From Uloborus plumipes (taxonomy: Eukaryota; Arthropoda; Arachnida; Araneae; Uloboridae): 64,000 bases of DNA. Shown in pieces: positions 11,451-64,000 of this stretch; the stretch's first letter is position 1, and every line of letters starts with the position of its first letter. Under the pieces are notes generated by a model. That model ran no database searches and was not told where the DNA came from. It was given only the letters and a program-made list of their open reading frames with translations. Made by a program: the position numbers and the translations under genes. The stretch spans positions 32,026 through 96,025 of the forward strand of contig JAXGGA010003878.1 in the NCBI GenBank assembly GCA_038373865.1, read 5' to 3'.

Positions 11451-11566
<116 letters not shown>

Positions 11567-16923: not shown

Positions 16924-19900
16924 CACAATGCATAACTTGGGTTTCTCACTCCTTTTTGGAAATATTTAAGCTTAAAGGTAAGCCATAAGGCAAAAACATG
17001 CGATTTTGGCCACCTTGGCAGCCATTTTTCTCATAAAGGGGGAGCAGTAGAAACTTTAATTTTTTTTAAACAAGCTACCGATATGTTAGGTATTCACAGG
17101 AAAAGAGTTTACTTTTGGTTATTTCTTGCATTAAGAGATAGCCAGCTGACAGTATACGCATGTTTTTCGCGACGACCATAAGGGTCATTCCATGTCAAGT
17201 GTCCCAAATTTCGAAAAAATCCCCATTCGACCCCCTCCGATTTTGATGAAATTTTTTTTGGATGTACATATAAGACTTTCATGAAACCATACCAAAGTAT
17301 AGCTCTATAGGCCTTATGGTTTAGCCAATAAAAATTATTGAAAAAAGGCCTCTTTTTCGTGTCTTGAAAAAAAATGAACAAATCGTCAAGTTTGTGCTTT
17401 TATTGCTCGCGACCTAAGACGATTATCAGGCTCAAATTTGGTGATTCTGATCACTGTTTAGGGTAGAATAGCCTACTTGTGTAACAAAAGCTTCATGCAC
17501 TATAGATTTTTTGCAATTTGCTGCCAAAGTTGGTAAAAAATCGTATTTTGGTAAATTTTGATCATACGTTATCAGCTTGTATCTGCTGAGAGAATGACTT
17601 TCTGAAGCTAATTCTTTCCTCGTTTGTAGCCTGATAGTTCGTCCGAAAGGTGTGCAAGTGGCATCTCGATAGCTCAAATAATTGCTGAATTATGCGAGTT
17701 GAAATTCCAGTTAAATTTCTTTTTTCTCAATTTTGTCTCAATTTCAAAGTGCAATATCTCAAAAGGGTCAGCTTGGATTTCAATTTTCTTTACATCATTG
17801 GAAAGAACACACTTTTCTTAACTAAAAAACGTTATTTTTATTTTTGAGACAAACCAGTTTCAAGGGATATTGCAGGTCAAAAATGTGTACGTCATTCAAC
17901 GTGAAATCAAAGAAAAAAAGACATAGACCTCAAAAGTTGATGTCAATTTGTTCTATTAAAATTTACAGGAGCTATTGTACTTATTTTCTGATAAAAGAAA
18001 CCTTTTTTAGATGTTTTTGAACTTTAGTTTTTGTGTGCGCACCCGTGAAAACTCAAGAAATGGCAAAAAATAAAGTTTCGTTTTTAACAAAAATAATTAT
18101 CTTCTTATCGCTGCTATAAGAGCTTGAGTCTTTTCCTATGTGTTATTTTTAAGTTCTTGAAACAGAATTTTGGATGATATGTCACTTGGCAAGGTGTCAT
18201 TAATATTTTAAATTCATAAAAAGCATTGTTTCCTTTTTCAAAAAAATAAATAAATAAATAAACATAAAAATAATTAATCAATGAGATAAATAATAAATAA
18301 AACAGTTAATATGGTGTGTACGTGATAAAAAATATGTATAATAGGACTGCAGAGCCATTTTTCTAAAATGCGATAACGAAAGTTTTCGATAGAGTTGAAT
18401 ATTACAATTATTTCCACCGTGTAAATAAATGATAACAATAGTAATTGAAAATATGATAAGTATTAATTGAAAATACATTCATTATTCTGCCGAGGATGTG
18501 TTTAGATATTCAGCCTATGATTGCAATTTGCCCATAAACAAAATTGATGAAAAATGGGAAAATGCTTTTTATGATCTTGAAACATTAATGACCTACAACC
18601 TTGCCAAGTGACATATCATCCAAAATTCTGTTTCAAGAGCTTAAAAATAACACATAGGAAAAGACTCAAGCTCTTATAGCAGCGATAAGAAGATAATTAT
18701 TTTTGTTAAAAACGAAACTTTATTTTTTGAAATTTCTTGAGTTTCACGGATGCGCACACAAAAAACTAAAGTTCAAAAGCATCTAAAAAAGGTTTTTTTT
18801 AATCAGAACATAAGTACAATAGCTCCTGTAAATTTTAATAGAACAAATTGACATCAACTTTTGAGGTCTATGTCTTTTTTTCTTTGATTTCACGTTGAAT
18901 GACGTACACATTTTTGACCTGCAATATCCCTTGAAACTGGTTTGTCTCAAAAATAAAAATAACGTTTTTTAGTTAAGAAAAGTGTGTTCTTTCCAATGAT
19001 GTAAAGAAAATTGAAATCCAAGATGACCCTTTTGAGATATTGCCCTTTGAAATTGAGACAAAATTGAGAAAAAAGAAATTTAACTGGAATTTCAACTCGC
19101 ATAATTCAGCAATTATTTGAGCTATCGAGATGCCACTTGCACACCTTTCGGACGAACTATCAGGCTACAAACGAGGAAAGAATTAGCTTCAGAAAGTCAT
19201 TCTCTCAGCAGATACAAGCTGATAACGTATGATCAAAATTTACCAAAATACAATTTTTTACCAACTTTGGCAGCAAATTGCAAAAAATCTATAGTGCATG
19301 AAGCTTTTGTTACACAAGTAGGCTATTCTACCCTAAACAGTGTTTAGAATCACCAAATTTGAGCCTGATAATCGTCTTAGGTCGCGAGCAATAAAAGCAC
19401 AAACTTGACGATTTGTTCATTTTTTTCAAGACACGAAAAAGAGGCATTTTTTCAATAATTTTTATTGGCTAAACCATAAGGCCTATAGAACTATACTTTG
19501 GTATGGTTTCATGAAAGTCTTATATGTACATCCAAAAAAATTTTCATCAAAATCGGAGGGGGTCGAGTGGGGACGCCTCGTACACTTGACATGGAATGAC
19601 CCATAAGCTTTTGTTCCCCCTCTCATGGACTTAAAATTAATTAAACCTAAAAATAATGATATATTTTTTAATAGCTGTATTATCTACCCAATGTCATGAA
19701 ATTTAATTTATTAAATCATTGAACAATAAATTAGGTATTTGATGAAAACAAGAAATAGTATTTCTCTGATGACTGAGCATTATGCATTCATAATTATAAA
19801 GTACTAAAGAATTTCTTGAGAAATTAATTAAAATAAAGGAGCTCTAAATATTTATCTCATAAGCAATACCCAATCTTGTGATTGGGATATTCCTGCTTTT

Positions 19901-22640: not shown

Positions 22641-23688
22641 AGAAATTACTAAGGCTCGACCGATGCATCGGCCGCCGATGCTAACATGAAAAAAACATCG
22701 GCCCATCGGCCTCAAAAATATCTAAATGCCGATGCAAGGCCGATGTTTTTTTTTTTTTTTTAAGTTTTCTTAAGAGGGAATTCTATTTTCTCGATTTTTT
22801 ACTTCACAATTAAAAGTTACATAGCACAATTAAATGTTCAGCATGTGGCTAGAAATCGGGCAGCAAACGGGACTAACACAGTTCTGGGTTTTGGAATTTT
22901 CCGAATCGGGCAAAAGGGCGTATTTAAGGAGGGGGGGCGAGGGAGCCCGCACTCCCCCCCCGAATTCGAGAAAGATTTTTTCAAAAGTAGGTGTTCGGTT
23001 CGTGTTTGCTCAAAAAAAAAAAAAACTTAAGAAAAACGCCCACTCTCTATTAACATTGTTTTCAAAGGTGTATATAAGGGAGTGCTCCAGAGGGTCTTTC
23101 CCTCCTATACCCCTCCCCCCCCCCGAAAAAAATTCGTTTTTTTTTAATAGGTAGTTATTATTATTCGGTTTAAGTTTACTTTAAAATTATTTACATACTT
23201 TTAGCTTGAAATGCTTAACTAAATAAATAATTATTACTAATAATAATTCGTTAGATGACACCAGGCAGTATATATAGCGGCTCTAGTGCAACCCAAGAGG
23301 GTCAGGGAGCCCTAGCAATTTACTCGAGAGAAAGAAGAACGTGTCTTGGGAAAATGAAGATATTTCAATTAGAAAACGCACAGAAAAAATCCTAATCATT
23401 TTGAATAGAAATCTTTAAATGAAAAATATTCAACGCGTGTTGATTATTAGTCAGCAAATTACGTTTCTCTCTTTGTTCTCATTCCCCCTGTTTTTCTAGT
23501 CAGCCAAGAAATAAGAGTCTTTAAAGTAATGCTACACTCAATAAATTTAAAATAAAGTGCAATCATTCCTCCTCGGCAAGAAATTTAGAATAAAGTGTAA
23601 GTATTCCTCCCAGTAAGAAATTTAAAATAAAGTGCAATCATTTTTGGTTTTAGTTTTTTCACAAATAATTTCCAAGCTTTCAGCTGAA

Positions 23689-23689
<1 letters not shown>

Positions 23690-23731
<42 letters not shown>
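23690..23731. repeat. Poly(A) tract, 42 bp
   Basis: Forty-two consecutive A. A preceding upstream block with repeated AAATTTAAAATAAAGTGCAA-like phrases (23545-23640) may be the 3' end of a retroposed sequence, with this tract as its tail. Confidence 0.9.
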
Positions 23732-23732
<1 letters not shown>

Positions 23733-35648: not shown

Positions 35649-36515
35649 TTTTTTTATATGTCAAAGTAGGTCATGAGAAGTGAACATTTTGAAGTTCGTA
35701 GCCACCAAAAAAATGTTGTCCGCTCGGTGAAAATTCCCAATGTTTGATGTTTTGCAGCGCTTTTTTGGTAAAATGGCTGAAAGACGCATTTCAGTGCGCT
35801 GTAGTTTTTTACAGAAACTCCACCTCAAGGTTTATTGATTGTATGTACAGTTAGTGTCTGGTTATGAAGACCCCATAGTTACTTGGGTTGAGGTGTGTTG
35901 CTTTCTTTAGTTAAGGCGCCGCAAAGTATGGTTTTTAGTCCATTTTAGCTCGACATTGAACTGCGTTCTTTCCAGTAAAATTTTTAACATAAACTGAAAA
36001 TGTATACTATGAAGAGAATATGTGGTACGAAAATTGTTTAATATCTCATTGCTTAGACTTAAGACGTTTTTCAAATTTTCAAAATTTGTGGTTTTTTGAT
36101 CGCATTTAACTCAAAACTGCAACCCTACAAAAATAACTTTTATGAATTATGGAACCTACAGATGTGTAGAATAACGTAAAAAAGAAAGTTGCGTGGGGTC
36201 TCGTCTAGTTTTCAAGAAAATAAAATTTTGTAGCTCTTTTTAATGCTTTTTTGTCATAGTAAAATGTGTTCATCAAGTAGGTCAGATCTGATGAAACTCT
36301 AAGTATATAGTAATGATGTATTTAAATTTGCATAGGAAAGAGAAAAAGACTAAAAACACTTAATTTTGTCTAAATTTTTAATTTTTAGCTTTTTTAATTT
36401 GCAATTACCTCAAAAACGTAAAATACTGAGAGAACTATTGAATGCACATGTTACTAGCTTTGAAATATTGGAAAAAGTAAATTCGGTGAGGTATCTTTAG
36501 ATGTATTCCGGTAGG

Positions 36516-36530
36516 AGGTCACAGTGTCCT
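36516..36530. promoter_or_regulatory. IR3 nuclear-receptor-like site (one mismatch)
   Basis: AGGTCA CAG TGTCCT in the left arm of unit 1, the inverted AGGTCA repeat with a 3-base spacer. It is the first of six such sites in the two units (others at 37056, 37396, 40746, 41286 and 41632). Regulatory activity is untested. Confidence 0.35.
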
Positions 36531-37618
36531 CTAGAAACATTTCGAATCCCGAAAAATTTTCGATCGAAAAATTTTGCTGATGATTCGGCAAAGTTGGAAA
36601 CAATACTGCAACATTGAAATTCTCTATTAATTTATATTTTACATGTTATGATTATTTTTTTATATTATATGATACCTGCATGTGTGTAAAACAACGTAAA
36701 AAATAAAGCGGCCAGGGGTCTCTTCCAGTTTTACAGAGAAAAAACATGTTGCAGATTTTAATACGTTCTCCCGTAGTAAAATGTGTGCAGTATGTAGGTC
36801 AGATCTGCTAAAACTTAAAATATGTAATAATAATTAATGTATGCATGTATAGAGAAAGAAAAAGACTCACAGAACTTAATTGTGTCTGAATTTTAGAACT
36901 TTTAACTTCTTATTGCAATAACATCAAAAAACTATAAATCGTTACTGAGTTAATTATTGAATTTACACATTTCTAGCTGGCAATGACTGGAAATATTCGA
37001 AAAAGTAAATATTGTGAGGTATTTTTAGAGGCTCCCAAATGAGAAGTCAAAGGAGATCACTGTGACCTCCAGAAAAGTTTCATACTCTGAAAAATTTTCT
37101 GAAGATTCAGCAACTTTGGAAACAATACTGCAACATTGAAATGATTTTTTTTTATTTTTTACGTATGGGCTTGATCGTATTTTATCATTCGAAAAAATCC
37201 GGTAATTCCTTTGGCAAATTAAGAACATCCTCTTGAGAAGTGTAAGATACTCATGGGCACTAGAACTTAAATTTTTACAAAATACGATCAAGCACATGTG
37301 CGAAAAATGTATCATTAAAAAAATTCAATGTTGCAATACTGTTTCCAAATTTACCGAATCGTTAGCAAAAATTTTTGATCATGAAATTTTTCGGCAGGTC
37401 ACTGTGACATACATCTGAAGATACCTCACCAAATTTACTTTCTCCAGTGTTTCAAAGCTAGTAATATGTGCATTCAATAGTTCACTCAGGATTTCACGTT
37501 TTTTGAGTTAATTGCAATTAAAAAACTAAAAATTATCAAAATTTAGACAAAATTAAGACGTCTTTTTTTAGTCTTTTTCTCTTTCCCTATACAAATTTAA
37601 ATACATCATTACTATATA

Positions 37619-39037
37619 CACTGCTCGACATTGAAAATGCAACACCAAGAAGGAGTGGTCAGAAATTCATGCAAATTCTACCGTAGACGCACGCCACTGA
37701 GTTATGCAAATGATATGAAATGCGCAGCTCTCCGACGCACGTGAAGTAAGATATAAGAGAATGAAGTTGAAAAGTGGGCTATGTTCATGTTGGTTTTTCT
37801 GCCAGACTAATTATCGGAGAAATTTGGTTTTTGTCTCGAAGGATACGTGTGATAGGAGGAAATGCCACGCCGTCCTCAACGAAGACACTTCCAGCATATA
37901 GACGACTTTACAAGGGGTATGGTGATCGGACTGAGAAGGGGAGGTTGGTCCATACGTCAAATTGCAGCTGATACCCACATGGATGCAAGCACTGTGCATC
38001 GACTGTGTCGGAGATGGTTGGAAAGAGGAAATGTAGCCACATTGAGGGGTGCAGGTGCAGCCAGAGTGACGTCAGACCGCTTGGATCGACGGATTCACCG
38101 ACAAGCTGTGGCGGACCCGCAAGTCACTTGTACGTCGATTCTGCAGCACGTGCAAGGTACCCTGGATGTTCCTGTGTCGACCAGAACCATTTCCCGTCGA
38201 CTGGTTGCACGTGGCCTGCAATCACGGCGCCCGCTAAGAAGACTGCCATTGACCTCACAGCACAGACTCCAATGTTTCGAATGGTGCCGGACCAGAGCGA
38301 CGTGGATGGCAGAATGGCAAACCGTAGTGTTCTCAGATGAATCCCGCTTCTGTTTATCCAGCGATAATCATCGCATACGTGTGTGGCGTCGACGTGGAGA
38401 AAGATTTAATCCGGCAGTAACTGTAGAACGCCCCACAGCGCGACAACGTGGCATAATGGTTTGGGGCGCTATTGCATACAATTCCGTATCACCTCTAGTT
38501 CGTATTCGGGCACTATGACGGCCCAATGATATGTAGATAATGTACTGCGGCCGGTGGCAATCCCCTACCTTCAGGGTCTGCCAAATGCATTTTTTCAACA
38601 GGATAACGCCCGGCCTCACAGTGCTCGAATCAGCCAACATGCTCTACGAGGTGTACAGATGTTTTCCTGGCCACCATACTCTCCTGACTTGTCACCAATC
38701 GAAAATGTGTGGGACGTGATTGGACGCCGTTTGCAGAACCTGTCACTGCCTCGTTCAGAGGACGAACTGTGGCAAATGGTTGAAAGGGAATGGAGTGCCA
38801 TCCCTCAGGACACATTCCGCAGGCTTATTGACTCCATGCATAGACGTGTTTCTTCGTGCATCGCTGTCCGCGGTGGTCCTACTTCTTACTGAGCCGACGC
38901 CGTCCTCGCTCTAAATTTTGCTTATTTATTTTGAAATAAATATCACTTATTGTTCCATGCTGTCTTTGTCTTCTTACCAAATTTCGTCAATTTTTGACCA
39001 CTCCTTCTTGGTGTTGCATTTTCAATGTCGAGCAGTG
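37619..39037 (+). mobile_element. Tc1-type transposon with 43-bp perfect inverted ends
   Basis: Both ends read CACTGCTCGACATTGAAAAT then GCAACACCAAGAAGG and AGTGGTCA on the inward strand (43 bp identical), flanked by TA at 37617-37618 and 39038-39039. The left arm of unit 1 (about 36298-36330) and both arms of unit 2 retain the empty target, so the insertion is exact and later than the palindrome. Length 1419 bp. The near-perfect ends argue for recent insertion even though its transposase is broken. Confidence 0.96.
37862..38892 (+). pseudogene. Tc1-type transposase, one frameshift and one nonsense codon
   Basis: The first frame (37862-38518) starts MPRRPQRRHF. Residues 15-55 form a helix-turn-helix (RQIAADTHMDASTVHRLCRR), followed by a second DNA-binding region and VVFSDESRF with the first catalytic Asp at residue 159. 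The second frame (38554-38892) carries QQDNARPHSAR with the second Asp and SPDLSPIENVWD with the catalytic Glu, 32 residues after that Asp by my count. Between the frames the GC run near 38508-38512 has apparently lost one base, and a TGA sits where Tc1 relatives have Arg (CAA TGA TAT). The full length of the family is about 340 residues, so all domains are present but the protein cannot be made. It normally cuts and pastes its own element in the nucleus. Confidence 0.93.
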
Positions 39038-40745
39038 TACTTAAAGTTTCAGCAGATCTGACCTACTTGATGGACACATTTCACTATGAGAAAAAAGCGT
39101 TAAATGAGCTACAAAAAAAATTATTTTCTTGAAAACTACACGAGACCCCAAGCAACTTTCTTTTTTACGTTATTCTACACATCTGTAGGTTCCATAATTC
39201 ATATAAGTTATTTTTTTCTAGGGTTGCAGTTTTGAGTTAAATGCGATCAAAAAACCACAAATTGTGAAAATTTGATAAATATCCAAGTTTTTTTCTCTTC
39301 AAAACAATGAGATATTAAACAATTTTCGTACCGCATATTCTGTTTATTTATACATTTTCAGTATATGTCAAAAACATTTGGGGGGTTACTTTTAGGGGAA
39401 ATAACGCAGTTCAAAGTCGAGCTAAAATGGACTAAAAACCATACTTTGCGGCTCCTTAACTAAAGAAAGCAACACACTACAACCCAAATAACTATGGGGT
39501 CCTCATAACCATACACTGTACAATCAATAAACGTAAACATAACCTTGGGGTGGCGTTTCTGTAAAAAACTACAGCGCACTGAAATGCGTCTTTCAGCCGT
39601 TTTACCAAAAAAGCGCTGCAAGACATCAAACTTTGGGAGTTTTTACCGAGCGAACAAAAATTTTTGGGGGGGCTACAAACTTTATAATGTTCACTTCTTA
39701 TGACCTAATTGTACATTAAAAAATGATGAATATCAAAAATGGTCACTGCCAAAATTTTTCTTTTTTGTTCGATTTTCAAAATAATGTCTCTTAAAGCCAT
39801 TATTTTGAAATTCAGACAAGGTGTGGCAGTAACCATTTTTGATTTTCCTCATTTTTTTATATGTCAAAGTAGGTAATGAGAAATAAACATTCTGAAGTTT
39901 GCAGCGCCCCAAAAAATTTTGTTCGCTCGGTAAAAATTCCCAAAGTTTGATGTTATGCAGCGCTTTTTTGGTAAAACGGATGAAAGACGCATTTCAGTGC
40001 GCTGTAGTTTTTTACGGAAACGCCACCCCATGGTTATGTTTACATTTATTGATTGTACAATGTGTAGTTATGAGGACCCCATAGTTATTTGGGTTGGGGT
40101 GTGTTTCTTTCTTCAGTTAAGGGACCGCAAAGTATGGTTTTTAGACCATTTTCGCTCGACTTTGTACTGCGTTATTTCCCCCCTAAAAGCAACCCCCCGA
40201 AATTTTTTTAACATATACTGAAAATTTACAGTATGAAGAGAATATGTGGTACGAAAATTGTTTATTATTTCATTGCTTTAAAGAGAAAAAGACTTAGACA
40301 TTTTTCAAATTTTCAAAATTTGCAGTTTTTTGATCGCATTTAACTCAAAAACAGCAACTCTAGGAAGAAAAAGGTTTAATGGATTATGGAAACTACAGAT
40401 GTGTAGAATAACGCAAAAAAAAAGTTGCGTGGGGTCTCGTCTCGTTTTCAAGAAAATAATTTCTTTTGTAGCTCATTTTAATGCTTTTTTCTCATAGTAA
40501 AATGTGTCCATCAAGTAGGTCAAATCTGCTGAAACTCTAAGTATATAGTAATGATACATTTAAATTTGTATAGGGAAAGAGAAAAAGGCTAAAAACACTT
40601 AATTTTGTATAATTTTTAGTTTTTTAATTGCAACTAACTCAGAAAACGTGAAATCCTGAGACTATTATTTAATGCACATATTACTAGCTTTGAAATATTG
40701 GAAAAAGTAAATTCGGTGAGGTATCTTCAGATGTATTCTAGTGGG

Positions 40746-40760
40746 AGGTCACAATGACCT
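40746..40760. promoter_or_regulatory. Perfect IR3 site (AGGTCA CAA TGACCT)
   Basis: A canonical inverted repeat of AGGTCA with a 3-base spacer, the architecture bound by estrogen-receptor-like and related nuclear receptors. It lies in the left arm of unit 2. Confidence 0.45.
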
Positions 40761-41285
40761 CCCGAAAAATTTCATGATCGAAAAATTTTGCTGATGATTC
40801 GGCAAAGTTGGAAACAATACTGCAATATTGAACTTTTCTATTTATCTATTTTTTGCATGTTATGATTATTTTTATATATTATATGATACCTACATATGTG
40901 TAAAACGATGTACAAAATAAAGCGGCCAGGGGTCTCTTCTAGTTTTACAGAGAAAAAAAATGTAGCAGATTTTAATGCGTTCTCCCGTAGTAAAATGTGT
41001 CCAGTATGTAGGTCAGATCTGCTAAAATTTAAAATACATGATGATAATTTATATATGTGTGTTTTATATTTGAGTGTATAGTAATAGTGAAAAAGAATCA
41101 CAGCACTTAATTGTGTCTAAATTTTTAGAACTTTTAGCTTCCAATTGCAATTATATTAAAAAACGATAAATCGTTACTGAGGGAATTATTGAATTTACAT
41201 ATTACTAGCTGGAAATGACTGGAAATATTCCAGAAAGTAAATACTATGAGGTATTTTTAGAGGCTCCCCAATGGGAAATCAAAGG

Positions 41286-41300
41286 AGGTCACTGTGACCT
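41286..41300. promoter_or_regulatory. Perfect IR3 site (AGGTCA CTG TGACCT)
   Basis: The second perfect IR3 in unit 2, extended to GGAGGTCACTGTGACCTCC, a 19-bp palindrome. Regulatory role is inference. Confidence 0.45.
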
Positions 41301-42620
41301 CCAGAAAAATTTCATATTCGGAAAATTTTTATGAAGATTCGGCAACTTTAGAAACAATACTGCAACATAGAAATTTTCTATTAATTTATTTATTTTTTAC
41401 ATGTGGGCTTGATCGTATTTTATCATTCGGAAAAATTGGGAAATTCCTTTGGCAAATTAAGAACATCTTCTTGAAAAGTATAAGATACTCATGGGCACTG
41501 GAACTTAAATTTTTACAGAATACGATCAAGCACACGTGACAAAAATGTAGCATTAAAAAATCTCAATGTTGCAATACTTTCCAAATTTGCCGAATCGTCA
41601 GCAAAATTTTTCGATCGTGAAATTTTTCGGGAAGTCACTGTGACCTCCCACTAGAATACATCTGAAGAGACCTCACCGAATTTACTTTTCCAATATTTCA
41701 AAGCTAGTAATATGTGCATTAAATAATAGTCTCAGGATTTCACGTTTTTTGAGTTAATTGCAATTAAAAAACTAAAAATTAAAAAAAATTTAGACAAAAT
41801 TAAGTGTTTTTAGCCTTTTTCTCTTTCCTTATACAAATTTAAATATATCTTTACTATATACTTAGAGTTTCAGCAGATTTGACCTACTTGATGGACACAT
41901 TTTACTATGAGAAAAAAGCATTAAAATGAGCTACAAAAGAAATTATTTTCTTGAAAACGAGACGAGACCCCACGCAACTTTCTTTTTTATGTTATTTTAC
42001 ACATCTGTAGGTTCCATAATCCATAAAAGCTTTTTCTTCCTAGAGTTGCTGTTTTGAGTTAAATGCGATTAAAAAACCGCAAATTTTGAAAATTTGAAAA
42101 ATGTCTAAGCCTTTTTCTCTTTAAAGCAATGAAATATTAAACAATTTTCGTACCACATATTCTCTTCATAGTATAAATTTTCAGTACATGTCGAAAAAAT
42201 TTCGGGGGGCTGCTTTTAGGGGGGAAATAACGCAGTTCAAAGTCGAGCGAAAATGGTCTAAAAACCATACTTTGCGGTCCCTTAACTGAAGAAAGAAACA
42301 CACCCCAACCCAAATAACTATGGGGTCCTCATAACTACACATTGTACAATCAATAAATGTAAACATAACCATGGGGTGGCGTTTCTGTAAAAAACTACAG
42401 CGCACTGAAATGAGTCTTTCAGCCGTTTTACCAAAAAAGCGCTGCATAACATCAAACTTTGGGAATTTTTACCGAGCGAACAAAATTTTTTGGGGTGCTG
42501 CAAACTTCAGAATGTTCATTTCTCATGACCTACTTTGACATATAAAAAATGAGGAAAATCAAAAATGGTCACTGCCAAAATTTCCTTTTTTTGTTCGATT
42601 TTCAAAATAATAGCTCTTAA

Positions 42621-47989: not shown

Positions 47990-48957
47990 TTGATTTCATC
48001 GTGCAAGGGCTCAAATCGGTTTGCTATGACTTCGATGTATCATTTGGGAGAATCTGTGAAGTGGCGACTCATCGACCATTTAGACGCAGGCCAGCCTATT
48101 ACGGACGTAGCCAGATGTCATGACAGACAGTCTCCACATTATGGAAACAGTTTCAAACTGAGGGAACTGTTGCAAGAAGGGTTGGACAAGAATGTAAACG
48201 AATGACAACTGCTGTCGAAGATCGATATTTAGTACCGACTGTCCGTCATAACAGGAAATCTACTGCTCGCCAGTTAGCTGTAGACCTTGTAGCCACCATT
48301 GAAACTGCTGTATCACGGCTAACGGTGTACAGAAGGCTTAATGATACAGGCCTTTATGCCAGAAGGCCAAGGGTATGTGTTTCACTGTCCGCACAACATA
48401 AGAGGGAACGCCAGAACTGGAGTGAACACCAATGGCCCTATGTTCTGTTTACTGATGAACAGAGGTTTGGTTTTACAGGTGATTTTAAACTGTGAAGGGA
48501 GTCAGGAGCACGAAATCATCCCTCAAACATTATGGAACATAACTGTTTTGGTCGTACTGGTGATGGTTACGGGGAGGTCGTGTGATGGTTACGGGAAGGA
48601 ATAACGATCAATGGACCTACACCCCTACAAGTTTTCGACAGTGGATCTGTGACCGGTGCGAGGTCTCGGAATGCGGTTCTAGTGCCTTATGTCAGACTTT
48701 TCAGATGTGCATATGGACCTGACTTTTTATTTATGAACGAAAATGCTCGTCCATATCGAGCAGCGCTCATTGACGACTTCCTTGAAAGTGAGGCATTGGG
48801 CAAATACCATGGTCACCAAAGTAACTTGATCTGAATCCGATAGAGAACTTATGGGACTACCTTGGAAGAGCAATTGCACGTAGACCTCATCCTCTTCGAA
48901 CTGTAAATGCTCTGAAGATAGCATTACTTGAAGAATGGATTCCCCCAAACTGTGGTT
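47990..48957 (+). pseudogene. Tc1/Tc3-type transposase, multiply broken
   Basis: Frames 47990-48205, 48202-48495 and about 48562-48834, then a shifted frame to 48957, together follow a Tc1-type protein: an N-terminal helix-turn-helix region, then RYLVPTVRHNRKSTARQLA, VLFTDEQRFGFTG (first Asp), NENARPYRAALIDDFLES and LNPIENLWDYLGRAIARRP (catalytic Glu). In the second motif the usual Asp (as in QDNARPH) is Glu. At least three frameshifts or stops separate the pieces. It is inactive, older than the copy at 37862-38892 and of a different subfamily. Confidence 0.85.
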
Positions 48958-58384: not shown

Positions 58385-59515
58385 GGTAAGCTGTTTTTAC
58401 CATGGTATTTACCGTCCTTAGAAGAACCCGTTTTCTCCATGGTTTTTACCATCTTGGACAAAAATATAAAACATTCAAGGGGTTTCCTTTCAATAAAAAT
58501 GTTTTTGATTTTGAAAGTGTAAGTTAAGGTAAAATGATCAAGGCTGTATAAACATGAACAATCTCTCCCTCCCCTTTTTTAAATTTAAATCAAATTTCAA
58601 CGACAGTAATCATTCGTTCAAAGCTAGAACTTAAGTTACGAACAATACTATAATATCCACAACCTCCTAATATGAGCTATGTACACGGGGGGGGGGGGGA
58701 ATCCAAATGAAAAGGAAAGCATTTTTTTATTTTGATGGTGATAATGTGATTTTATTGTTGACTTTGCTGGTTTTTTGTGAGCCAACAAAATAAAAAAATG
58801 CTTCTAAAAATATTTGCCGTTGTTGTTTTCTTTTGCAATATGTGCTAAAGAATAAATGAAAGTCTAAACTCATAAATAATATGTTATTGTAAAAATTCTT
58901 ATGCTTAAAACATAATTATTGTTTCGGTAATTTTATTCAAATAATTAATTTTCAACGGATATGTTTGCTAAGTTCATTCATGCATAAAATAAATGCAGTT
59001 AATTTTTTCCTAAGAAAATTTTTAAAGAAAGGAAAACATAAATTTAACAATATAAATATTTGTGTCCTCTTAACATTCATTCTGTGGAAAAATGCAATTT
59101 TTTCGTGTGCATGATTAGTGCAATAGCTGATTTAGTTTAGTATAATTCACATGTAACACAAATAAATTATTTTGATTAACATTCATTTATATTACCTACT
59201 GATGAACTTTGAAAATTTAGTGAGATTATTAATTTATCCGAAACGGAAACCTTCCCTCTTATTTTATTTATTTATTCTACAAATCTTTAACTCGTGAGAT
59301 AGTTGTCATTTCATTACTTGTCACATGGTGTTTTTGGTAATATGGAATAATATATTAAGACAAAATAATACATAGGACATAATAGTAAAATATAAGATCT
59401 ATGCAGAGGCTTATTTAGAAAGGGACAAACAGTATTTCCTAGGTTTTTTCCCCGGTAAAAACCTGGTTTTTCTCATGTCGTGGTAAAACCAGTTTTTCCA
59501 GGGAAAAACCCAACC
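58385..59515. mobile_element. Possible hAT-like element, right end visible
   Basis: The right end reads CCAGGGAAAAACCCAACCCTG at 59497-59517, typical of hAT ends that begin CAGGGTTGGG. Repeats of TTTTTACCATGG and GGTAAAAACC lie near both edges (58398-58452, 59450-59490). The left terminus has decayed and no target duplication was found. Confidence 0.4.
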
Positions 59516-59799
59516 CTGTGTGTGAGGATTTTGAATTGAATTCCCGAAAACGTAGAAATATATCAACAACAGCAAAACAATCTATTAAGTGTTTGACTTT
59601 TTCCAATTGCTTACTTTTGTAATTTCCATCTCTATGTCTCGAAACCTCCCTTTCGAATTTTTCTTGTGTTCCATGATTCGAGATAGACAGGTTCGACTGT
59701 ATAAATTTATGGTATGCAATTATAATCCACTCCTAAAATGACTGTAGCAACTCAATATGTAAAACGAATAAAGGTAAAATTTGCATGTTGTTACTGGTA

Positions 59800-62700
59800 T
59801 TGGGGGGGAATAGGTATGTGGAGTGGCGGTCTTGCGGTAGTTGTGGGTTACGAGTCGTTTCGTGTTAGTGTTGTTGTGGATGTTATAAGGGGATAGGGTA
59901 AGGGTGGTTTATGGAGAGGTGTAGAGTAGGTGGGGGGTGGGTGAGGTGGGGAGGATGGGAGGTAGGGTTGGTTTATAGGATATGGGGGTTTAGGTTGTGT
60001 GAAGTGGGTGGTAGTTAGTGAATGATTATGGTTAAATGGGGGGTGGTTTGTTGGGATTGAGGGTTGTGTTATAAGGGTGTAGAGGTGGTGTAGGTGGATA
60101 GTGGTAGAGGGAGTTTGGGGTTGAAGGGTAGGGAAGTTTAGTGGTTTGGGTTTAGTTGTGTTGTGTGTGAGATGGTGTTGGAGGGGGATGTTTGGTTTTT
60201 GTGGATTTTTGGTTGATGTTGGATTGGTAGGTATTGGGAGTGTGGTTGTTGTGGTGGTTGGGTGGGGGTTGGGGTGGTTGGTTGTGGGGGTTGGGTTTTG
60301 GGTTGTGGGGGGGTGGGTGTTGGGTGGGTTTGTGGTGTGGTGTGGGTGGGTTGTGGTGGGGTGTTGGGGGTTGGTGGTTGGTGGTGGTTGGGGGGGGTGT
60401 TGGTTGTGTGGTGTGGGTGGTGTGGTTGGGGGTGTGGTGTGGTTGGGTGGTTTGTGTGGGGTGGGTTGGTGGTGGGGGTGTTGGTTGTGGGGGTTGTGGT
60501 GTGTTGGGTGTGTGGGGTGTGTTGTGGTGGTGGGTTGGTTGGTGGTGGGGTTGGGGGTTGGTGGTGGGTGTTGGGTGGTGGGTGGGGTTGGTTGTGTTGG
60601 GGTGGTGGGTGTGGGGTGGGGTGTGTGGGGTGGGTGGTTGTGGTTGGTGTGGTTGTGGTGGGTGGGTGGGTTGTGGTTGTGGTGTGGTTGGTGTGGTGTG
60701 TGGGGGTGGGGTGTTGTGGTGGGGGGTGGTGTGGGTGGTGGGGGTGTGGGGGTGGTGGTGGGGTTGGGTGGGGTTGGGGGTGTGGGTGGGTGGTGGGGGT
60801 GTGGGGGGTGGGTGTGGGGTTGGGGGTGGTTGGGGGGGGGTGGGTTGGGGGTGGTGGTGGTGGGTGTGGTGGTGGGTGGGTGGTGGGGTGTGGGGGTGTG
60901 TGGGGTGGGGTGGGTGGTTGGGGTGTGGTTGGTGGGGGTGGGGGGTGGGGGTTTGGTGGGTGGGGGGTGGGGTGTGGTGGTGGGGGGGTGGGTGGGGGTG
61001 GGGTGGTGTGGGGGTGTGGTGGGTGTGGGGGGTGGGGGTGGTGGGGTTGTGGTGGGGGTGGGGGTGGGTGTGGGGTGGGTGGGTGTGGGGGTGGGGGGGT
61101 GGTGGGGTGTGGGTGGGGGTGGGTGTGGTGGGGGGGTGGGGGGGGGGGGTGGGGGGGGGGTGTGTGGTGGGGGGGGTGGGGGGGGTGGGGGTGGGGGGGG
61201 TGTGTGGGGGTGGGGTGGGGGGGGGTGTGGGGTGGGGGGTGGTGGGTGTGGTGGTGGGGTGGGTGGGGGTGGTGGGGGGGGGGTGGGGGTGGGGGGTGGT
61301 GGGGGTGGGGGTGGGTGGGTGGGGTGTGGGGGGGTGGGGTGGTGGGTGTGGGTGGGGGGGTGGGGGGGTGGGGGTGGTGGGTGGGGGTGGGGGGGGGTGT
61401 GGGGTGGGGGGTGGGGTGGGGGGTGGGGGGGTGGTGGGGGGGGTGTGGGTGGTGGGGGGGGGTGGGGGGTGGGGGTGGGGTGGTGGGGGGGTGGGGGGGG
61501 GTGGGGGTGGGTGGGGGGTGTTGGGGTGGGGGGTGGGTGGGGGGGTGGGTGGGGGGTGGGGGGTGGGGGTGGGGGTGGGGGGGGGGGGGTGGGTGGGTGG
61601 GGGTGGGGGGTGGTGGGGGGGGTGGGTGGGTGGGGGTGGGTGGGGGGTGGGTGGGGTGGGGGGGGGTGTGGGGGGGTGGGGGTGGGGGGGTGGGGGGTGG
61701 GTGGGGGTGGTGGGTGGTGGGGTGGGGTGGGGGTGGGGGGGGTGGGGGGGTGGGGGGGGGTGGGGTGGGGGTGGTGGGGTGGGTGGGGGTGGGGGGGTGG
61801 GGGGGTGGGGGTGGGTGTGGGGGGTGGGGGGGGGTGGGTGGGGGGGTGGGGGGGGGGGTGGGTGGGTGGGGGTGGGGGGGTGGGGGGGTGGTGGTGGGGT
61901 GGGGGGGGGGGGTGTGGGGGGGGTGGGGGGTGGTGGTGTGGGGGTGGGGTGGGGTGGTGGGGGGTGGGGTGTGTGGGGTGGGGGGTGGGTGGGGGGTGGG
62001 GTGGGGGGGGTTGGGGGGGTGGTGGGGTGGGGGTGGGGTGGGGGGGTGGGGTGGGTGGGGGGGGGGTGGTGGGGGTGGGGTGGGGGGGGTGGGGGGTGGG
62101 GGGTGGGGGTGGGGGGGTGGGTGGGGGGGGGTGGGGGGGGTGGGGGGGTGGTGGGTGTGGGGGGGGGGTGGGGGTGGGTGGGGGGGGGGGTGGGTGGGGG
62201 GGGTGGGGGTGGGGTGGGGTGGGTGTTGGGGGGGTGGGGGGGGGTGGGGGGTGGGGGTGGGGGGGTGGTGGGGGGGGGGGTGGTGGGGGTGTGGGGTGGG
62301 TGGGTGGGGGTGGTGGTGGGGGGTGGGTGGGGGGGTGGTGGGTGGGTGTGGGGGGGGTGGGGGGTGGTTGGGTGGGGTGGGTGGGGGGGGGGGGGTGTGG
62401 TGGGTGGGGGTGGGGTGGGGTGGGGGGGTGGGTGGGGTTGGTGGGGGTGTGGGTGGGGGTGGTGTGGGGGGTGGGGTGGGGGGTGGGGGTGGGGGGTGGG
62501 GGGGTGGGGGGGGGGTGGGGTGTGGGGGGTGGTGGGGGGTGGGGTGGGGGGGGTGTGGGTGGGGTGTGGGGGGGGTGGTGGGGGGGGGTGGGGTGGGGGG
62601 GGGTGGGTGGGGGGTGGGGGGTGGTGTGGTGGGGTGGGGGGGGGGGGGGTGTGGGGGGGGGTGGTGGGGGGGGGTGGGGGGGGGTGTGGGTGGGGGGGTG

Positions 62701-64000
62701 GGGGTGGGGGGGGGGGGGGGGTGGGGTGGGGGGGGGGGGTGGGGGGGGGGGTGGGGGGGGTGGGGTGGGTGGTGGGGTGTGGGGGGTGGTGGGGGGGGTG
62801 GGGGGGTGGTGGGGGTGGGGGTGGGGGGGGGGGGGGGGGGGGGGTGGGGGGGTGGGTGGGGGGGGGGGTGGGGGGGTGGGGGTGTGGGGGGGGGGTGGGG
62901 GGTGGGGGGGTGGGGGGGGGGGTGGGGGGGTGGGGGGGGTGTGGGTGGGGTGTGGGGGGGGTGGGGGGGGTGGGTGGTGTGTGGGGGGGGGTGGGTGGGT
63001 GGGGGGGGGGGGGGGGTGGGTGGGGGTGGGGTGGGGGGGGTGTGGGGGGTGGGGGGTGGGGGGGGGGGGTGGGGGGGGGGGTGTGGGGTGGGGGGTGGGG
63101 GGGGTGGGGGTGGGGGTGGGTGGTGGGGGGGTGGGGGTGGGGGGTGGTGTGGGGGGTGTGGGTGGTGGGTGGGGGGGGTGTGGTTGGGGGGTGGGTGGGG
63201 TTGGGGTGGGGTGGGGTGGGGGGGGTTGGTGGGGTGTGGGGGGTGGGGGGTGGGGGGGTGGGGGTGGTTGTGGGGTGTGGGTGGGGGGGGGGGGTGGGTG
63301 GGGTGGGGGGGTGGGGTGGGGGGTGGGGTGGGGTGTGGGGGTGTGTGGGGTGGGGGTGGGTGGGGGGTGTGGGGTGGGGTGTGTGGGGGTGGGGGTGTGG
63401 GGGGGGTGGGTGGGGGTGGGGGGGTGGGGGGTGTTGGGGGTGGGGGGTGGGGGTGGTGTGGGTGGTGGGGGTGGTGTGTGGGGGTGGGGGGTGGGGGTGG
63501 TGGGGGTGGGTGGGGTGTGGGGGGGGGGGTGTGGTGGGGGGGTGGTGGGGTGGTGTGGGGGGGGTGGTGTGGGGGGGTGGGGTGGTGGGTGGTGGGGGTG
63601 TGGTTGGGGGGTGGGTGGGGGGGGGTGGGGGGGTGGGGGGGTGTGGGGTGGGGGGTGGTGTGGGGGGGGTGGGGGTGGGGTGGGGTTGGGTGGGGTTGTG
63701 GGTGTGGGTGGGTGGGGTGGGTTGGTGGTGGGGGTGGTTGTGGGTGTGGTGTGGGGGGGGTGGGGTGGTGGGTGGGGTGTGGGGTGTGTGGGGGGGTGGG
63801 GGGTGGGTTGGGGTGTGTTGGTGGGTGGGGGGGGTGGGGGTGGGGGTGGGGGGTTGGTGGGTTGTGGTGTGGTTGGGGTGGGGGGGGGTGGGTGTGTGTG
63901 GTTGGGGGGGTGGGGTTGGGGTGTGTTTGGGGTGGTGGTTGGGTTGTGGGGGGGTTGTGGGGGTGTGGGGGGTTGGGGTGGTGGTGGGTGGGGGGTTGGT
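59800..64000. repeat. G/T-only tract, progressively losing C then A (probable artefact)
   Basis: The last C is at 59861 and the last A at 60239. From 60240 to the window end the plus strand is only G and T (3761 bases). T then falls from about one third to roughly one fifth or less around 61100-63100, with G runs of 8-20, and rises slightly after about 63600. There is no repeating unit, no TTAGG telomere motif and no coding. The gradual drift from normal sequence, without a sharp junction, points to poor-quality consensus and not a satellite. Confidence 0.8.

What the first reader, a model, noticed from the sequence alone, without database searches (positions are those of the whole stretch)
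60240..64000. 3.76 kb of pure G/T with bases lost in order C, A, then T
C disappears after 59861 and A after 60239, with T declining later and recovering slightly at the end. A smooth compositional gradient with no repeat unit is not how satellites or telomeres behave. The leading explanation is consensus from failing reads, such as a stuck or noisy nanopore signal or dark-cycle poly-G. If real, it would be one of the most extreme strand-asymmetric G-rich tracts known and a massive G-quadruplex former.
Basis: partly seen in the sequence, partly recalled or inferred. Interest (0 to 1): 0.75.

Follow-up and report, generated by a model that had tools for sequence, protein, structure and literature searches.

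The report
Failing sequencer reads left in assembly
A 3.8-kilobase stretch made only of G and T at the end of a contig is best explained as output of a failing long DNA read, because similar stretches recur through the same assembly and one of them fades out of an ordinary repeat whose other copies read normally.

Summary
The anomaly starts earlier, at 59784, where the sequence leaves a repeat whose other copies continue almost identically. C and A vanish in steps, T follows a smooth bowl; there is no repeat unit.

It is almost certainly not DNA. A 14-mer of this type occurs 2122 times in the same 1.42-Gb assembly, on both strands. Eight further tracts, all interior to large contigs, show C missing where A remains. 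The decisive case is contig C109: its tract edge is an ordinary repeat read with rising error. Correct C calls fall from 1.0 to 0 and A to about 0.4, while G and T largely persist (controls). A Qipengyuania citrea contig carries a similar 1228-base tract between noisily read inverted copies of one locus.

Best reading: single-molecule long reads with failing base discrimination, kept by the assembler. The platform is not established. In the window itself no hidden template was recovered, so it is filed by likeness.

The parts
59300..59783 (+). Last normal stretch: part of an interspersed repeat, read correctly up to 59783
   Evidence: 39 other scored matches at 99-100% over query 1-484 (a lower bound, 40 of 1422 candidates were scored); 10 distinct copies fetched continue 99.8-100% alike for 1.5 kb past this point
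59784..59861 (+). Onset of the artefact inside the repeat: G rises sharply, C still present
   Evidence: Segment 59786-59865: A .125, C .088, G .425, T .362; no alignment to the repeat's continuation above controls
59862..60239 (+). A/G/T zone without C
   Evidence: Segment 59866-60240: A .176, C 0, G .472, T .352
60240..64000 (+). Pure G/T tract; T falls from about 37% to 17% and rises to 28%; TT avoided; no period; ends with the contig

Best explanation
The tract is a base-calling artefact, not DNA. A single-molecule long read (or a few) lost the ability to tell bases apart: C was lost first, then A, then most T, with G as the final default call, and recovery runs in the reverse order where it can be seen. 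Where coverage was thin the assembler kept the stretch, here as the contig end, elsewhere as an interior bridge. Shown: recurrence in the assembly, the order of loss, the C109 edge as a misread real repeat, and a bacterial counterpart. Inferred: that the window's own tract arose in the same way, that few reads support it, and that the cause is failing signal. My leading guess for the platform, a two-colour instrument of PacBio type, rests on recalled dye pairing only.
For: Tract at the contig end, starting abruptly inside a repeat whose copies go on normally. 14-mer 1085 times on one strand and 1037 on the other; the reversed-order control is equal, 1064 and 1054, so the sequence has no direction of its own. 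28 of 30 returned loci lie in such tracts, on 8 contigs of 265-649 kb, all interior. 9 of 9 tracts, window included, have 100-base bins with A but almost no C, and no bin has C without A. C109 left edge: called bases 377-1060 score 254-270 against 6 copies of the repeat, maximum 140 in 200 random window stretches; by segments 377-600, 600-850, 850-1100 and 1100-1272, 0, 0, 0 and 1 of 200 controls reach the observed score. Fate of true bases over ten bins: correct C 1, 1, 1.96.55.54.54.08, 0.07; correct A .97, 1.97.96.64.75.67.40.43.56. Q. citrea contig: 1228 bases of G/T, A returns at 136439, C at 136793; flanks are noisy inverted copies of one locus, and error falls to zero substitutions and deletions in the last two bins at the contig end.
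Against: In the window no template signal was found after 59784, so its case is by likeness. Only one own-genome edge gave the direct proof; the C106 edge had no useful copies, the repeat at C109 right does not reach the graded zone, and searches for C216, C2, C14 and C91 edges did not complete. In C109 the segments 850-1100 and 1100-1272 align to overlapping parts of the repeat, so the alignment is uncertain there. The two-letter core is not explained base by base: deleting A and C from the bacterial template gave z -0.6 to 1.0. No raw reads, quality or depth were available.
Confidence: 0.94

Rival explanations
1. Consensus of many noise reads: several G/T-biased noise reads align to one another and the majority vote strips the rarer letters (C, then A, then T) as depth rises; steps are read ends. 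A variant of the artefact reading that needs no graded signal failure.
For: Majority consensus of simulated noise loses C, then A, with depth. With A .15, C .05, G .50, T .30 and TT disfavoured, depth 100 gives G .837, T .163, TT 1 of 12.9 expected, close to 61241-63240.
Against: It needs chosen input frequencies and a TT rule; without the rule TT is near expected in most runs. A partial-order consensus kept about 9-10% A at depth 30. The C109 edge is a misread single template, which noise alone does not give.
Confidence: 0.15
2. Colour-channel failure on a PacBio-type instrument: the dyes of A and C fade or shift first, leaving G and T. A refinement of the best explanation.
For: C and A go before G and T in each tract seen and on C109.
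Against: The dye pairing is recalled; one paper search did not confirm it from its listing, and no platform is known for either assembly. Lost C in C109 is deleted or read as G, T or A, without one clean rule. A weak match to a recalled Nanopore adapter lies at the window's onset (p .03-.06 before correction for four adapters).
Confidence: 0.4
3. Real DNA: a heterogeneous G/T telomere, satellite or G-quadruplex island. The G-rich strand runs 5' to 3' towards the contig end, as at a telomere.
For: Orientation at this contig end; many copies in the genome.
Against: No period. TTAGG pairs are not enriched, 2 seen, 5.3 expected. Other tracts are interior. Across 21 tract pairs the mean similarity z is 1.25 with one pair at 4.5, from only 12 simulations each, so no clear shared sequence. 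Composition drifts along the tract. The C109 edge is a misread ordinary repeat, and a bacterium has a like tract.
Confidence: 0.02
4. Short-read dark-cycle poly-G assembled into a long tract.
For: Of 14 bacterial loci found by a tract-like pattern, 10 have their longest run within 15 bases of a contig end, several nearly pure G or C.
Against: 12 of those 14 runs are 86-203 bases, of short-read size; here 3761, and 5356 in C109. Graded loss of C, then A, over hundreds of bases of one template is not that pattern.
Confidence: 0.02

Closest known systems
Nanopore 'high-quality noise reads' and low-complexity spurious reads (CarrierSeq, PMC5872496, and PMC6708270; passages read)
   Same: Reads that match nothing and are put down to malfunctioning pores rather than DNA.
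   Different: Whole short reads (267-865 bases in the PMC6708270 table), no G/T composition mentioned in the passages, not joined to real sequence in contigs.
Base-calling loss at inverted duplicates on nanopores (PMC7229812; abstract and passages)
   Same: The bacterial counterpart lies between inverted copies of one locus, with wrong and missed calls nearby.
   Different: C109 has no inverted flanks, and no G/T output is mentioned in the passages read.
Two-colour short-read poly-G (recalled; examples)
   Same: G as the default call, often at contig ends.
   Different: Mostly 86-203 bases, without A/G/T zones hundreds of bases long.

Membership tests
Long-read base-calling artefact retained in an assembly | Edge is a real template read with rising error | tested here: met
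   Met for the C109 tract and for Q. citrea; not found for the window's own onset
Long-read base-calling artefact retained in an assembly | Unrelated organisms show the same profile | tested here: met
   Q. citrea contig: G/T, then A, then C return
Long-read base-calling artefact retained in an assembly | Low depth, low quality, one strand in raw reads | not testable with these tools
   No reads held
PacBio-type colour failure | The two bases of one colour are lost together | tested here: inconclusive
   C and A go first, but the pairing is recalled and the platform unknown
Telomere or satellite array | A repeat unit | tested here: not met
   No period above simulations; tandem repeat rows match only 62-75%
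Telomere or satellite array | Position at chromosome ends (telomere) | tested here: not met
   8 of 8 other fetched tracts are interior to contigs
Short-read dark-cycle poly-G | Length limited by short reads | tested here: not met
   3761 bases here, 5356 in C109

The most novel reading that the evidence does not exclude
The tracts are real DNA: a strand-biased process in the cell erodes ordinary sequence, repeats included, removing C, then A, then T from one strand over kilobases and leaving G-rich cores with great G-quadruplex potential at many places of a 1.4-Gb genome. The mixture of deletions, insertions and all kinds of substitution in C109 and the bacterial counterpart speak strongly against it but do not strictly exclude it.
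Probability: 0.015. Interest if true: 0.95.

Novelty: not a real feature. Interest (0 to 1): 0.2.

Why it matters
As biology it does not. As quality control it does: a large assembly appears to hold many kilobase tracts of this kind inside contigs (2122 hits of one 14-mer; 8 of 8 fetched tracts interior), and a public bacterial genome holds one too. They could be scored as extreme G-quadruplex clusters, strand-skewed islands or new satellites, and contigs joined across them may be wrong. The signature (G/T only, A/G/T zones at the edges, no C without A) is simple to screen for. If a real process made them, it would be an unknown kind of strand-specific erosion; I hold that very unlikely.

Tried and rejected
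Telomere, satellite and short-read poly-G: see rivals.

Recoding of the true template. In the window, 59784-60240 was compared with the repeat's continuation under six letter rules including none (z -1.3 to 1.1) and with permissive alignment, also against the upstream reverse complement: nothing above controls. In Q. citrea, deletion of A and C gave z -0.6 to 1.0. A wider set gave high z under many rules, and one control region also scored high, which I put down to uneven composition. A first fold-back test had controls of mixed lengths; a length-matched one gave 2 of 150 controls at or above the observed score for A to G with C to T, 0 of 150 for A and C both to T, 115 and 146 of 150 for the other two rules: a hint only. 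The idea that edges follow transitions fits the purine fraction of C91, C106 and C216 (.53-.54) but not C2, C14, C109, C180, C274 or the window (.62-.71); dropped as a rule.

Adapters: the best match at the onset, to a recalled Nanopore adapter core, has p .03-.06 before correction for four adapters; not used.

Simulations: a backbone-vote script gave the same numbers under two scoring schemes, which I take for a fault; not used. A partial-order consensus lost C, then A, only in part. In one search the observed alignments were searched on a finer grid than their controls; one search repeats the test on equal grids with 200 controls, and its numbers are the ones relied on. Tract-against-tract similarity: 21 pairs, mean z 1.25, one at 4.5, 12 simulations each; read as no clear kinship.

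Literature: ten searches; among the titles and abstract openings listed I saw none on kilobase G/T tracts in contigs. Beyond listings I read only passages of PMC5872496, PMC6708270, PMC11428151, PMC13374868 and PMC7229812. One paper was not held. A notebook entry speaks of 12 repeat copies; they are 12 loci of 10 distinct copies.

Full report
Observation. The rest of the window is ordinary AT-rich DNA, 28-42% G+C per 2 kb, with remnants of Tc1-type transposases and no Rfam match at gathering scores; I take it for animal DNA, an inference. Segmentation puts the main breaks at 59795, 60240 and 60930, and with a lower penalty also at 59785, 59865 and 63685. A is steady and then gone, T follows a smooth bowl, TT is avoided, and there is no period. 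Tandem Repeats Finder reports weak arrays over the tract (62-75% matches, periods 1 to 472); I give them no weight, without having run a shuffled control.

Place. The window is bases 32026-96025 of contig C3878 in an assembly of 1.42 Gb and 25906 contigs. That contig has 96025 bases, so the tract is its end. The last normal stretch, 59300-59783, is part of an interspersed repeat with 39 other scored matches at 99-100%, all ending at the same point. Ten distinct copies (12 loci) were fetched; compared with one of them, the rest are 99.8-100% alike for 1.5 kb that runs past this point. So the window departs in the middle of the element, within a few bases of the change in composition.

Not one place. 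The 14-mer GGTGGGGTGGGTGG occurs 1085 times on one strand and 1037 on the other; my own arithmetic puts chance below one. The first 100 places, the only ones listed, form clusters, one spanning about 10.7 kb on contig C588, which I did not fetch. Of the 30 loci returned, 28 lie in tracts on 8 contigs and 2 (C129, C265) do not. The 8 tracts are interior to contigs of 265-649 kb. Profiles: C109 loses C, then A, has 5356 bases of G/T with T near 20%, then A and C return. C2 has more than 200 bases of pure G near its start, then T, A and C return. C14 and C274 begin abruptly. C91, C106, C180 and C216 have graded edges, not all seen on both sides. 9 of 9 tracts, the window included, have bins with A but almost no C. 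TT is avoided in 8 of 9 (ratios .30-.74; C2 .93).

The decisive test. If edges are misread ordinary DNA, an edge inside a repeat should still align to intact copies. Three edge searches were answered. C109 left has 36 other matches at 93-95%, 34 of them over query 1-377. C106 has only short weak ones. The repeat near C109 right does not reach the graded zone. For C109 left, 7 copies were fetched; six are 96-99% alike to the seventh over 1.1 kb. Called bases 377-1060 score 254-270 against the 6 copies compared; 200 random window stretches have mean 51.7 and maximum 140.0. By segment: 377-600 scores 120.5 (control maximum 75.5), 600-850 scores 107.0 (84.0), 850-1100 scores 32.5 (25.5), and 1100-1272 scores 43.5 (44.5, 1 of 200 above); the last two use overlapping parts of the repeat, so the alignment is uncertain there. 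Over ten bins the share of true C called C is 1, 1, 1.96.55.54.54.08, 0.07; of A .97, 1.97.96.64.75.67.40.43.56; of G .96.86, 1.50.56.82.62.53.84.85; of T 1.97.97.82.79.81.77.89.84.53. Lost C is deleted or read as G, T or A. So 'C, then A' is an order of failing calls on real DNA. The mixture of deletions, insertions and many substitutions does not look like a known mutation process.

A case elsewhere. A scan of prokaryote contigs for a tract-like pattern gave 14 loci; an earlier stricter pattern gave none. Twelve have longest runs of 86-203 bases; one (L011) has 461; one, Qipengyuania citrea H150 contig Ga0466837_03, is like the window. There G/T runs from 135211 to 136438, A returns at 136439, C at 136793. 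After it comes the minus strand of a locus on contig 1, 88% alike over 1538 columns; in the first 150 bases about a fifth of true bases are wrong or missing, in the last two bins none, with 3 and 1 insertions. Before it comes a noisy copy of the plus strand of the same locus (score 136, best of 20 shuffles 101). The flanks are thus a fold-back. G is 52% and T 48% at the start of the tract. The passages I saw of two papers on this strain name no genome sequencing platform. The profile is therefore not peculiar to one organism.

Mechanism. Shown: ordinary template, rising miscalls, C first, then A, and recovery in reverse order where seen. Inferred: a disturbance of one molecule's signal, G as the default call, and coverage so thin that the assembler kept it. 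A consensus of noise can give the core statistics under chosen inputs, so depth may contribute; it does not account for the C109 edge. Nanopore noise reads are documented (passages of PMC5872496 and PMC6708270), as is base-calling loss at inverted duplicates (abstract and passages of PMC7229812); neither describes this composition in what I read. From recall only, PacBio chemistry pairs A with C and G with T by colour, which would suit the order.

Limits. The window's own tract is filed by likeness: its onset is abrupt and no template was recovered. One own-genome edge carries the direct proof. Raw reads were not available. The genome-wide extent is known only as the 14-mer count.

Noticed in passing
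37862-38892 and 48124-48495: Remnants of Tc1-type transposases: HTH_Tnp_Tc3_2 in two places and DDE_3 at 38530-38889.
   Followed up: partly
17179-19605 and 35650-42620: Large inverted repeats, for example arms 17179-18240 and 18548-19605 at 95.6%, and 39791-40853 with 41541-42620 at 92.7%.
   Followed up: no
58687-58699: A run of 13 G in otherwise normal sequence about 1.1 kb before the onset.
   Followed up: no
11451-11560 and 23687-23732: A 110-base run of only A and T, and a 46-base run of only A and C, both longer than in 20 shuffles.
   Followed up: no
L031 (Q. citrea H150, NZ_JALJZT010000003.1, 135001-138465): A public bacterial contig ends in a noisy inverted copy of a locus on another contig with a 1228-base G/T tract inside, apparently a misassembled fold-back read.
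   Followed up: yes
L001, L002, L004-L010, L013, L014: Runs of nearly pure G or C (86-203 bases) in bacterial contigs, mostly at or near contig ends, that look like short-read poly-G left in assemblies.
   Followed up: partly
L033 (C2) and L062 (C274): Two tracts hold long pure-G runs near one end (over 200 bases in C2) before T returns, as if the disturbance were strongest at its start.
   Followed up: no
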